Source: Pseudomonadota bacterium
GTDB taxonomy: Bacteria; Pseudomonadota; Gammaproteobacteria; Burkholderiales; Burkholderiaceae_C
Assembly (NCBI GenBank): GCA_018241185.1
Contig: JAFEEH010000263.1
Coordinates: 1 to 63,678, forward strand
Direction of reading: 5' to 3'
DNA length: 63,678 bases
Shown in pieces: positions 10,429 to 18,300 of this stretch. The position numbers and the translations under genes were made by a program. The notes beneath the pieces were generated by a model, which saw only the letters and a program-made list of their open reading frames with translations, was not told where the DNA came from and made no database searches. The stretch's first letter is position 1. The number at the start of each line of letters is the position of its first letter.

Positions 10429-10929
10429 TCAGGGCGCCGCCTGCAACTGCCCTTCGCTCAGCGTGTCGAGCTGAAAGCGGCCACTCTCGTCCCACAGCCA
10501 GGTGTCGGTCCACACGACGGCGCCGAGGCGTGGAGACACGGGGTAGGGCGCTGCCGCGAGCACCGTGCGCTCGATGCCGGCGATCGCGTCGGGCGCATGC
10601 TGGGGTGCGCGCAGCCAGTGCAACGACGTCACCTGGCCCGCCGCGTCGATGCTCACCTGCAGCGTGCCGATGGCGTACAGCAGCGGCGGCAACTGGCCGC
10701 GGTAGATCCGGCTGCCGTTGAGCGCATAGATATGGCGGGCGGCATCGCGCTTGTAGTCGCGCGCGCTGGCGGCGCTGGAGCTGGCCGCGCGCCCGCCCGA
10801 GGCGGTGGGCGCCGCATCGGACAACTGGCCGGGGACCTTGCCGCCGGTGCCGCAGCCGGCGAGCCACAGGGCAGCGAGCAGCGCCGCGCCCATCGAGAGC
10901 CGGCGGATCGAGGTGGACGAACGCATCAT
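10429..10929 (-). CDS. Predicted lipoprotein with a TonB-C-like domain
   Basis: The 166-residue protein begins MMRSSTSIRRLS and has a lipoprotein signal with the lipobox LAGC, so it is probably anchored in the periplasm. A low-complexity Ala/Ser linker is followed by about 95 residues (IYRGQLPPLLYAIGTLQVSI, then a helix, then PRLGAVVWTDTWLWD). This pattern resembles the C-terminal domain of TonB/TolA-like energy transducers. It is convergent with uraH and divergent from xdhC, and nothing links it to purines. Confidence 0.72.
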   Translation of the reverse strand: MMRSSTSIRRLSMGAALLAALWLAGCGTGGKVPGQLSDAAPTASGGRAASSSAASARDYKRDAARHIYALNGSRIYRGQLPPLLYAIGTLQVSIDAAGQVTSLHWLRAPQHAPDAIAGIERTVLAAAPYPVSPRLGAVVWTDTWLWDESGRFQLDTLSEGQLQAAP

Positions 10930-16258: not shown

Positions 16259-16306
16259 TCCACCCATTCGAACGCATAATTGGACGCCGTCCACATCGAT
16301 CCTGCC

Positions 16307-16993
16307 GTGAGCTCCGACCCCGTCCGTCCGCCCCCGCCGCCGCGCAGCACCTACCGCCACGGCGACCTGCGCCGCGCGCTGTTGGAAGCGGGCATCGACC
16401 TGGCACGCGAAGGCGGCCCCGATGCCGTGGTGTTGCGCGAGGCCACGCGCCGCGCGGGCGTGGTGCCCAACGCCGCGTACCGCCACTTCGGCAGCCGCGA
16501 CGCCCTGCTGGAGGCCGTGCGCTCGGCCGCTCTGGCCGCGGCGGCACGCGCGATGGAGGATGCCTGGCGTGCCGCGGGTGCCGACCTCCCTCGCGCCGAT
16601 GCGCGCGGCGCGGCGACGGGCGCCGACGCCATCGCGTCCGCGCGCGCCGCAGTGCGCGCCGTGGGCGACGGCTACCTGCGCTTCGCGCGCCGCGAGACCG
16701 GTTTGTTCCGTACCGCTTTCGCTTCCGTGACCCCGGTGACAGGCGTGCGCGACCCGGCCAAGGCCGGCGCCAGCGGGCTCAACCCCTTCGAACTGCTGGG
16801 CAGCGCGCTGGACCGGCTCGTCGCCGCCGGCGGGATGCCTGCCGAGCGCCGCCCGGGCGCCGAGTACCTCGCATGGTCGGCCGTGCACGGCATGGCGATG
16901 ATGGCCATCGACGGCCCGCTGCGCGGCCTGGACGATGCGCAGCTGGACGCGCTGGGCCAGCGTCTGCTGGACATGGTGGAGCGTGGGCTATGA
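16307..16993 (+). CDS. TetR/AcrR-family transcriptional regulator
   Basis: The protein has 228 residues from a GTG at 16307; a TTG at 16280 is also possible. The N-terminal helix-turn-helix is clear (TYRHGDLRRALLEAGIDLA, then ATRRAGVVPNAAYRHFGSRD). The C-terminal ligand domain ends with WSAVHGMAMMAIDGPL and LLDMVERGL. Its stop overlaps the first of two repeat-encoded mini-ORFs in an ATGA, and these lead to the phosphatase gene, so the pair is probably one transcript. The target is unknown. Confidence 0.83.
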   Translation: MSSDPVRPPPPPRSTYRHGDLRRALLEAGIDLAREGGPDAVVLREATRRAGVVPNAAYRHFGSRDALLEAVRSAALAAAARAMEDAWRAAGADLPRADARGAATGADAIASARAAVRAVGDGYLRFARRETGLFRTAFASVTPVTGVRDPAKAGASGLNPFELLGSALDRLVAAGGMPAERRPGAEYLAWSAVHGMAMMAIDGPLRGLDDAQLDALGQRLLDMVERGL

Positions 16994-17058
16994 GCGCCGC
17001 CCGGCCGCTCCGAAGGCGCTCGCACCCGCAGTGCGCAGCACGGAGGGTGGGTCGATGA
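16990..17058 (+). CDS. Repeat-encoded mini-ORF 1 (22 residues)
   Basis: The ATG overlaps the TetR stop (ATGA), and the TGA at 17056-17058 overlaps the ATG of mini-ORF 2. The product is Arg-rich (starting MSAARPLRRRS, with HPQCAARRVGR at the end). It may be only a translated coupling device and not a functional peptide. The 69-base frame minus the 4-base overlap gives the 65-base period. Confidence 0.45.
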   Translation: MSAARPLRRRSHPQCAARRVGR

Positions 17059-17119
17059 GCGCCGCCCGGCCGCTCCGAAGGCGCTCGCACCCGCAGTGCG
17101 CAGCACGGAGGGTTTTGCA
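16990..17119 (+). repeat. Two tandem 65-bp repeat units between a TetR gene and a phosphatase gene
   Basis: Unit 1 is 16990-17054 and unit 2 is 17055-17119. The first 58 bases are identical in both; only the last seven differ (TGGGTCG versus TTTTGCA). Each unit starts with ATGAGC and carries GGAGGG near its end, so each provides a start codon, a ribosome site for the next frame, and an ATGA junction. Confidence 0.92.
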
Positions 17120-17123
17120 ATGA
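17055..17123 (+). CDS. Repeat-encoded mini-ORF 2 (22 residues)
   Basis: This frame is identical to mini-ORF 1 through 20 residues and differs in the last two (LQ instead of GR). Its TGA (17121-17123) overlaps the ATG of the phosphatase gene at 17120. Ribosomes ending on it would be placed exactly at the phosphatase start, with GGAGGG seven bases upstream. Confidence 0.45.
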   Translation: MSAARPLRRRSHPQCAARRVLQ

Positions 17124-17596
17124 GCAGCGGCCCGCCACGCATCCTGTTCATCTGCACCGGCAACATCTGCCGCTCGCCGACGGCGCACGCGCTGCTCGTG
17201 CACCGGGCCGACGCGCTGGGTTGGCCGGTCGAGGTCGACAGCGCCGCCATCTCCGACGAGGAGCGTGGCAACCCTTTCGACCGACGGGCCGCGGCGGAAC
17301 TGCGCCGCCGTGGCGTCCCGATGCATGCGCATCGCGCCCGGCAGGTGCGGCGCGAGGACTTCACACGTTTCGATTGGCTCGTGGGCATGACCCAGGCGCA
17401 CTGTGCGGCGCTGCGCCGCCTGGCGCCGCCCGGTGCCGCTGACCGCGTGCTGCTGCTGATGGACGGAGTGCCGGGCCACGAAGGCCAGGACGTGCCCGAC
17501 CCGTGGTACGGGGGCGAGGCGGACTTCCGCCACGCATTCGACCTCATCGCGCTGGGTGTCGATGCCCTGGCGGGACGCCTGCGTCCGGCCGCCTGA
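17120..17596 (+). CDS. Low-molecular-weight protein tyrosine phosphatase
   Basis: The 158-residue protein has the phosphatase loop CTGNICRS (Cys12 and Arg18 of the CX5R motif) and the general acid in DPWYGG, so it should be active. Such enzymes dephosphorylate tyrosine kinases or small substrates in the cytoplasm. The GGAGGG ribosome site lies inside the tandem repeat. No polysaccharide genes lie nearby, so an exopolysaccharide link is not supported. Confidence 0.92.
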   Translation: MSSGPPRILFICTGNICRSPTAHALLVHRADALGWPVEVDSAAISDEERGNPFDRRAAAELRRRGVPMHAHRARQVRREDFTRFDWLVGMTQAHCAALRRLAPPGAADRVLLLMDGVPGHEGQDVPDPWYGGEADFRHAFDLIALGVDALAGRLRPAA

Positions 17597-17598
17597 GT

Positions 17599-17660
17599 GC
17601 TATCGATTTCGTAGCTGCCCACGCAGGCGGGGCGGGCGCTACAGCCTCTTTTGCCTTGAA
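17599..17660 (+). repeat. Dispersed two-hairpin repeat, copy E
   Basis: It starts 2 bases after the phosphatase stop with GCTAT-CGATTTC-GTAGC, then a GC stem ending CGGGCGCTACAGCC, and the TTGCCTTGAA tail. It separates convergent genes (phosphatase and LysE exporter). Confidence 0.78.
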
Positions 17661-17670
17661 CCGAGGGCGT

Positions 17671-18300
17671 TCAGCCGGGTCGCCGCGCCATCAGCGCCCA
17701 GACGCCCGCCGCCGACAGCAGCGAACCGCCCGCGAGATGGAAGCGCCGCTGCGCCCGCGGCGAGCTGAGCAGCTTGCGGGCCGAGGCCGCGAACACCGCG
17801 TAGAGCGTGGCATTGAGCGTCGCCAGCACCACGAAGGTAAGGGCCAGCACCCACAGCTGGCGCGTGACCTCGGCTGCGGGCGAAATGAACTGCGGGAGGA
17901 AGGCGACGAAGAAGACGATGCCCTTGGGGTTGAGCGCCGTCACCAGCCAGGTGTTGAAGAACAGGCGCCAGCGCGACTGCGGTGCCGCCGGGGCCGCCAG
18001 CTGCGCGACCGGCGACACGCCCGCGCGCAGCAGCTTGATCCCCAGGAAGATGAGGTACGCGCCGCCGACCCACTTGATGAGCGTGAACCAGAGGGCCGAG
18101 GTGGCCAGCAGCGCGCCCAGGCCCAGCAGTGACAGCACCAGCGCCGTCGAGTCGCCCAGCGCCACGGCCGCGACCAGCGGCACATTGGCCTTGCGGCCGT
18201 GCGCCATCGAGTAGCTGATGACGGTGAGGATCGTCGGGCCGGGAATGACCAGCATCACCGCCGAGGCAGCGACGAAGGCGAGCCAGAGTTCGAGGGGCAT
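17671..18300 (-). CDS. LysE/RhtB-family amino-acid exporter
   Basis: The 209-residue inner-membrane protein has about six hydrophobic helices and the family N-terminus (LAFVAASAVMLVIPGPTIL, then AHGRKANVPLVAAVALGD). GGAYLIFLGIKLLRAG and FFNTWLVTALNPKGIVFFVAFLPQF are also LysE-type blocks. It would export a small neutral amino acid or similar compound. It is followed on the same strand by no other gene, and a thioesterase gene lies 51 bases upstream. Confidence 0.88.
   Translation of the reverse strand: MPLELWLAFVAASAVMLVIPGPTILTVISYSMAHGRKANVPLVAAVALGDSTALVLSLLGLGALLATSALWFTLIKWVGGAYLIFLGIKLLRAGVSPVAQLAAPAAPQSRWRLFFNTWLVTALNPKGIVFFVAFLPQFISPAAEVTRQLWVLALTFVVLATLNATLYAVFAASARKLLSSPRAQRRFHLAGGSLLSAAGVWALMARRPG

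What the first reader, a model, noticed from the sequence alone, without database searches (positions are those of the whole stretch)
16990..17123. Tandem 65-bp repeat that preserves ATGA translational coupling between two genes
Two units (16990-17054, 17055-17119) are identical in 58 of 65 bases. Each starts ATGAGC, encodes 22 residues, ends in TGA overlapping the next ATG, and carries GGAGGG as ribosome site for the next frame. So TetR, mini-ORF 1, mini-ORF 2 and the phosphatase are joined by three ATGA junctions. The odd period of 65 is exactly 69 minus the 4-base overlap. An element that can copy itself and keep coupling at any number of units would be a novel kind of selfish or regulatory repeat.
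Basis: partly seen in the sequence, partly recalled or inferred. Interest (0 to 1): 0.8.

Follow-up and report, generated by a model that had tools for sequence, protein, structure and literature searches.

The report
Repeats that slip between coupled genes
A short DNA repeat, found in many relatives of this bacterium, usually sits exactly where one gene's stop signal overlaps the next gene's start and rebuilds that overlap, so neighbouring genes can stay linked in translation even when copies stack up; how it moves is unknown.

Summary
The unit belongs to an interspersed repeat family found in 15/15 sampled genomes of the genus and 152/299 (83/141 genera) of the family. A context-free census of two genomes found 63 copies: 62 begin xTGA and 55 ATGA; leaving out five second units of arrays, the upstream gene stops exactly at that TGA in 49 of 58 and within 10 nt in four more. 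Only 13 of 326 ATGA sites in the window are gene ends. Relatives show the empty ATGA/GTGA overlap at 8 of 9 readable junctions; one junction has 0, 1 or 2 units; arrays reach five. Most units let the reading chain reach the next gene, as mini-ORF or in-frame leader; the frame-breaking class is rare. Two hairpins covary; the peptide differs between subfamilies. Best reading: a small mobile or once-mobile repeat specialised for stop-start overlaps, whose mini-ORF relays ribosomes. The moving enzyme is unknown; Y1 (RAYT-like) transposases do not track it. Relay is inferred, not measured. Ten paper searches and Rfam gave no description.

The parts
16280..16993 (+). Upstream gene, TetR-family regulator; its TGA stop overlaps the start of unit 1
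   Evidence: ORF; Pfam TetR_N 1.5e-09 and TetR_C_33 9.5e-18
16990..17054 (+). Repeat unit 1 (65 bp, 22-codon mini-ORF, stop overlaps unit 2 start)
   Evidence: model R1 73.4 bits
16992..17021 (+). Unit 1 hairpin 1 (stem 16992-16998 with 17015-17021)
   Evidence: covariation across the family
17031..17041 (+). Unit 1 hairpin 2 (stem GTGC/GCAC, loop GCA)
   Evidence: covariation across the family
17042..17047 (+). Unit 1 Shine-Dalgarno-like GGAGGG
   Evidence: sequence
17055..17119 (+). Repeat unit 2 (65 bp, 22-codon mini-ORF, stop overlaps the phosphatase start)
   Evidence: model R1 91.6 bits
17057..17086 (+). Unit 2 hairpin 1 (stem 17057-17063 with 17080-17086)
   Evidence: fold of this unit
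17096..17106 (+). Unit 2 hairpin 2
   Evidence: fold of this unit
17107..17112 (+). Unit 2 Shine-Dalgarno-like GGAGGG
   Evidence: sequence
17120..17596 (+). Downstream gene, low-molecular-weight phosphotyrosine phosphatase family
   Evidence: ORF frame; Pfam LMWPc 9.4e-33

Best explanation
It is a family of small (mostly 59-66 bp) interspersed repeats that lie, and by empty-site evidence insert, at stop-start overlaps (xTGA) of co-directional genes. Each unit supplies a start codon inside the upstream gene's ATGA, a roughly 20-codon open frame, two hairpins, a Shine-Dalgarno sequence and the next ATGA. SHOWN by sequence: the position, the restored junction at both ends, copy-number variation and tandem arrays, covarying hairpins, and depletion of the length class that would break the reading chain. 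INFERRED: ribosomes ending the upstream gene reinitiate on the mini-ORF, melt the hairpins, end at the next ATGA and reinitiate downstream, so several units are tolerated. INFERRED: the family spread within genomes by a mechanism that recognises gene ends, acting with selection against units that interrupt translation; the enzyme is unknown.
For: Dispersed copies: 15/15 genus genomes with 7-60 matches at E<=0.01; 152/299 family genomes. Core model without either ATGA: 63 copies in G000 and G005; 62 with xTGA, 55 with ATGA, upstream gene on the same strand in 63; 49 of 58 copies that are not second units follow a gene stopping exactly there, 4 more within 10 nt. Base rate: 13 of 326 ATGA sites in the window by the frame-only test (the same frame-only test gives 55 of 63). 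A genome-collection scan with a pattern lacking ATG: 88 of 94 matches left after four chance hits have xTGA in range. Empty sites: window junction empty with GTGA overlap in 3 relatives at 87-89%; L066 junction empty with ATGA in 5 genomes at 92-94%; L095 junction empty in 3 genomes at 88-93%, one unit in G007, two in G001 and G012. Downstream frame over 125 clear forward junctions: relay 88, fused 29, breaking 8. Covariation: 141 cells changed on both sides against 48.4 in shuffles. The gene table of a Variovorax plasmid puts one gene end and the next gene start at the two ends of a unit.
Against: No mobilising enzyme identified. 5 of 58 census copies lie 17-85 nt from the upstream stop and 5 have a reverse-strand neighbour, where there is nothing to couple. 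17 of 142 reading chains fail the strict ATGA test; five of these use TGATG or TAATG overlaps by eye. At one of 9 readable junctions (L053, 77-80% identity) relatives lack an overlap, and at four others (window, L066, L120, L136) some more distant relatives lack it too. Copies are related by descent, so frame counts are not independent; one search set aside six pattern matches without TGA in range, and R1 itself was built from ATGA-flanked copies. Covariation could reflect DNA hairpins rather than RNA. Folding energy of four single units is unexceptional (z -0.70 to -1.77), as is that of the tandem pair (z 0.79). No expression data.
Confidence: 0.7

Rival explanations
1. Insertion is not site-specific; the repeat lands anywhere and only copies at stop-start overlaps survive, because there it does no harm.
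For: The frame-breaking class is depleted; all three CTGA copies in the census, which have no start codon, lack a clear coupled downstream gene.
Against: Harmless non-coding sites should also hold copies, yet 58 of 63 census copies are at the upstream stop, within 10 nt of it, or are second units of arrays. Copies before reverse-strand neighbours still coincide with the upstream stop although no coupling needs protecting.
Confidence: 0.25
2. It is a domesticated regulatory element: hairpin 2 and the Shine-Dalgarno form a translation attenuator, kept where graded expression of the downstream gene is useful.
For: RNAalifold pairs CC before hairpin 2 with GG of the ribosome site; hairpins covary.
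Against: Presence varies 0/1/2 among relatives at one junction, and the host genes look unrelated: regulator/phosphatase, permeases, others by my own reading of the sequences (acyl-CoA genes, an antiporter, a phage operon).
Confidence: 0.3
3. It is a REP/REPIN-type element moved by a Y1 tyrosine transposase (RAYT).
For: Two hairpins per unit; a Y1_Tnp gene in 14/15 genus genomes, one match each.
Against: Across 299 family genomes the repeat is not positively associated with Y1_Tnp: both 105, repeat only 47, Y1 only 117, neither 30; odds ratio 0.57, p 0.047. At the 14 Y1 loci of the genus R1 gave only weak matches, best 15.4 bits, E 0.0023 in L323. G003 has 16 matches and no detected Y1_Tnp.
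Confidence: 0.07
4. The mini-ORF encodes a functional conserved small protein.
For: Open frame of about 20 codons; one frame-0 stop among 80 distinct units of length 2 mod 3. Two of the three main peptide types share the stretch ARTA(V/A)RS(T/A)EV by eye.
Against: The window's own subfamily reads another frame over most of its length, because single-base differences shift the frame inside the unit while total length stays 2 mod 3; other frames also seldom hold stops (4 and 9 of 80).
Confidence: 0.05

Closest known systems
REP / REPIN elements and RAYTs (PMC3116915, PMC2817692: listing and start of abstract; PMC3733652: abstract start and one passage)
   Same: Small interspersed palindromic repeats; [quoted passage not shown]
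   Different: Here the element supplies stop, start, ribosome site and open frame, lies mostly at gene ends in one orientation, and is not positively associated with Y1_Tnp genes
Rickettsia palindromic elements (as described in review PMC10969869, passages seen)
   Same: Mobile palindromic repeat tolerated because translation continues through it
   Different: RPEs insert in frame inside ORFs; these lie between genes at the stop-start overlap, with in-frame leader fusions as a minority class
Prokaryotic MITEs such as ERIC, Correia and Chunjie (PMC10969869, passages)
   Same: Short non-autonomous repeats in many copies
   Different: No parent transposon found here (only Y1_Tnp was searched for); the site is a stop-start overlap
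Termination-reinitiation at ATGA overlaps (PMC6728339, abstract and passages)
   Same: The junction used at both ends of most units
   Different: The parts I saw concern native gene pairs, not a repeat that inserts into and regenerates the overlap

Membership tests
REP/REPIN | Palindromic repeat, many copies per genome | tested here: met
   hairpins covary; 7-60 matches per genus genome
REP/REPIN | Genomic association with a RAYT (Y1_Tnp) gene | tested here: not met
   no positive association across 299 genomes; only weak model matches at the 14 Y1 loci of the genus
REP/REPIN | Intergenic (extragenic) location | tested here: not met
   49 of 58 census copies overlap the upstream stop; 9 lie 4-85 nt past it
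MITE | Terminal inverted repeats shared with an autonomous element | tested here: inconclusive
   no inverted repeat of 12 nt or more joins the ends of the window units; shorter ones and parent elements other than Y1_Tnp were not tested
MITE | Target-site duplication | tested here: inconclusive
   the junction tetranucleotide occurs once in empty and twice in filled sites, but left and right letters do not agree (29 ATGA/GTGA, 6 GTGA/ATGA, no GTGA/GTGA among 157)
Rickettsia palindromic element | In-frame insertion inside an ORF | tested here: not met
   census copies follow the upstream gene's stop; leader fusions at the downstream gene's start occur
Any Rfam family | Match at or near the gathering score | tested here: not met
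   no match to E 10 on window 16500-17700; none at the repeat in 10 loci at gathering

The most novel reading that the evidence does not exclude
A new class of mobile repeat whose target is the translational stop-start overlap itself and which regenerates that target at every insertion. It could stack without limit and stay nearly invisible to operon translation: a translation-transparent selfish element.
Probability: 0.5. Interest if true: 0.88.

Novelty: new variant of a known kind. Interest (0 to 1): 0.76.

Why it matters
Operons are hard places for insertions, because breaking translation tends to cause polarity (general knowledge). A repeat found in more than half the sampled genera of a bacterial family, placed at the one spot where stop, start and overlap can be rebuilt, suggests how mobile DNA can colonise operons with little damage. 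It offers natural series of 0, 1, 2 and more units to measure termination-reinitiation, and raises the question of what recognises gene ends.

Tried and rejected
Local tandem duplication only: rejected, the unit is dispersed. RAYT mobilisation: tested and disfavoured. Known RNA family: none. Plasmids and viruses as main carriers: one plasmid record of the collection and one genuine viral-contig copy (L478; the other hit, L477, is a chance match); the phage collection was not searched. Target duplication against an element-borne ATGA: undecided, since the left/right letters, the window junction (relatives GTGA, filled ATGA) and the L095 junction (relatives ATGA, filled right end GTGA) point different ways. 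Literature: ten searches gave no description of such a repeat in what I saw; only open-licence papers are held, and except for the passages cited I saw listings and abstract starts.

Weak points of my own counts. In one search my script preferred frame-2 start candidates, so frame statistics come (93 model-defined junctions). Rows dropped: four chance pattern matches (L229, L247, L259, L263) and six matches without a TGA in range (second units in L199 and L222, L206, L233, L251, and one cut at a locus end in L238); its 217 items merge to 157 distinct junctions. A recheck tightened the census: the frame-only count of 55 of 63 falls to 49 of 58 when five second units are set aside and an open upstream frame of 50 codons is asked for; in the 157-junction set 113 of 126 clear upstream frames end at the unit, 105 of them with 50 open codons. 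In one search the control with one base added still passes in 89 of 125, because that makes in-frame fusions; only the base-removed control (14 of 125) is informative. Two Zoogloea MAG contigs carry copies, although the class sample found none outside the window's family; contamination or transfer was not tested.

Full report
The observation. Window 16990-17119 holds two head-to-tail 65-bp units that agree at 60 of 65 positions (compared by eye). They lie between a TetR-family gene and a low-molecular-weight phosphatase gene. Each unit is an open frame of 22 codons whose TGA lies inside the next ATGA, preceded by GGAGGG.

It is a family. A search of the window's own genome with one unit found about a dozen strong copies. 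A covariance model, R1, from 28 copies found matches in 15 of 15 genomes of the genus, 7 to 60 each at E<=0.01, and in 152 of 299 genomes (83 of 141 genera) of the family. In a sample of 369 genomes of the class only 2 had it, both of this family. Matching contig lengths indicate that G005 is Xenophilus azovorans DSM 13620 and G013 is Comamonadaceae bacterium ALPHA2B, so the window lies in that genus; this naming is an inference.

Where it sits. To avoid circularity I built R2 from the core only, without either ATGA, and took all 63 matches in G000 and G005. Of these 62 are preceded by xTGA: ATGA 55, GTGA 3, CTGA 3, TTGA 1. The best upstream coding frame is on the same strand in 63 of 63. Five copies are second units of arrays. 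Of the other 58, the upstream gene stops exactly at the unit's TGA in 49, 4-10 nt before it in 4, and 17-85 nt before it in 5. A looser, frame-only count is 55 of 63. By that frame-only test 13 of 326 ATGA sites in the window are gene ends and 10 are coupled junctions. Downstream of the 58 copies that are not first units of arrays, the next gene is in the relay frame in 39, fused in 12, in the breaking frame in 2, and on the reverse strand in 5. Over 157 distinct junctions in all data 143 begin ATGA, and 113 of 126 clear upstream frames end at the unit, 105 of them with at least 50 open codons; that set is partly conditioned on a TGA. The gene table of a Variovorax paradoxus plasmid shows a permease ending and the next permease starting at the two ends of a unit.

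Empty sites. I joined flanks without the unit and searched the genus with 16 junctions. Nine gave readable relatives; for seven the relatives were missing, fragmentary or too divergent. At eight (window, L063, L066, L095, L119, L120, L128, L136) at least one relative has an ATGA or GTGA overlap where the filled genome has the unit. The cleanest are L066 (five genomes, 92-94% identity, exact 65-bp difference), L095 (three genomes, 88-93%) and the window (three genomes, 87-89%). Results that do not fit as well: at L053 the relatives (77-80%) have no overlap; at the window, L066, L120 and L136 some more distant relatives have none; at L119 eight genomes have ATGA and four have ATGA followed by a start about 30 nt on; at L063 some relatives hold partial units; at L136 only one relative is cleanly empty. 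The L095 junction has 0 units in G006, G009 and G011, 1 in G007 and 2 in G001 and G012. Another junction, judged orthologous by its flanking letters, has 1 unit in G000, G002 and G013 and 2 in G010. An array of five occurs in one MAG contig.

Reading frame. Among 93 model-defined distinct junctions, unit length is 2 mod 3 in 66, 0 in 24 and 1 in 3. From codon-position GC of the downstream gene, independent of start choice, the relay frame has 88, the fused frame 29, the breaking frame 8; nine more look reverse-strand and 19 are weak. A simulated chain of ORFs linked by ATGA overlaps reaches the downstream gene in 125 of 142 copies with a forward neighbour. Five of the 17 failures use TGATG or TAATG instead, by eye. 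Removing one base leaves 14 of 125 intact; adding one leaves 89, since that yields fusions. Subfamilies differ by small indels in stem, loop, spacer, hairpin 2 and tail whose sum is usually 2 mod 3 in total length, while the peptide of the window's subfamily differs from the commoner types over most of its length. Copies are related, so these are not independent events.

Structure. Two hairpins are supported by 9 pairs with changes on both sides, 141 such cells against 48.4 in shuffles, and 96.0% paired cells against at most 49.8% for slid versions (that alignment is fitted to the model; one search gives the same direction on a MAFFT alignment of 28). RNAalifold also pairs CC with GG of the ribosome site. 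This may reflect mRNA structure or a DNA hairpin used in movement. Four single units fold little better than shuffles (z -0.70 to -1.77), and the tandem pair no better (z 0.79).

Function. The simplest reading is relay: termination at ATGA, reinitiation on the mini-ORF, opening of the hairpins and the next ribosome site, termination at the next ATGA. Coupling by termination-reinitiation is reported for native overlapping gene pairs (PMC6728339, abstract and passages). The relay through these units is inferred. In the census all three copies with CTGA, which have no start codon, lack a clear coupled downstream gene, as expected if the start is kept by selection at coupled junctions. The five copies before reverse-strand neighbours still coincide with the upstream stop, which suggests that the insertion step itself, not only selection, recognises gene ends; descent from formerly coupled sites is not excluded.

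Movement. Identical cores at unrelated junctions of one genome (L094, L118, L120; and sequences printed there), empty sites, copy-number differences and a copy in a viral contig between two ORFs of what looks like a phage structural operon (L478; gene identity from recall) argue for mobility. Y1_Tnp genes give one match in 14 of 15 genomes of the genus, with only weak model matches nearby. Across 299 genomes they do not track the repeat: 105 both, 47 repeat only, 117 Y1 only, 30 neither, odds ratio 0.57. The enzyme remains unknown. Whether ATGA is duplicated target or carried by the repeat is undecided.

Known or new. Rfam has no match, and ten searches of open-licence papers gave no description in what I saw. 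REPs (which may supply a stop codon), Rickettsia palindromic elements and MITEs are the nearest kinds; for REPs and Rickettsia elements a defining feature was tested and not met, and for MITEs the tests were inconclusive. I file it as a new variant of small interspersed mobile repeats, with a distinctive site and a coupling-preserving design.

Noticed in passing
L012, around 1501-1524: A related hairpin core (GCCCGGCCGCTCCGAAGG) followed by CCCCCTCGGGGGG occurs in another repeat context; the family may be modular, with a non-coding branch.
   Followed up: no
L146, L181, L159 (92-nt units): Three units have an extended hairpin 1 of about 27 extra nt, yet length stays 2 mod 3 and the mini-ORF (31 codons) still ends at the next start.
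   Followed up: partly
L007, L014, L140, L145 and others: Units of 60/63/66 nt whose mini-ORF is fused in frame to the downstream gene, adding an N-terminal leader of about 20 residues.
   Followed up: partly
L478, about 10750-10816 (minus strand): A viral contig carries a 62-nt unit between two ORFs in what looks like a phage head-tail operon, starting GTGA and ending at ATGA.
   Followed up: partly
L250 (G130 contig C289): Array of five units with one 66-nt unit that fuses two mini-ORFs into 44 codons.
   Followed up: partly
L118, downstream of the unit: The unit keeps its right-hand ATGAGC although a GC-rich inverted repeat and a reverse-strand gene follow, hinting that the right ATGA may belong to the element.
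   Followed up: partly
L449, L452, L455, L456 (L119 junction in G002, G008, G010, G014): Instead of the unit, a different short ORF of about 10 codons starting in the ATGA and ending in the next GTGA or ATGA seems to bridge the two genes; it could be a remnant or an unrelated relay.
   Followed up: no
L260 133-191: Rfam SECIS_3 match (85.8 bits) in a Xenophilus genome, unrelated to the repeat.
   Followed up: no
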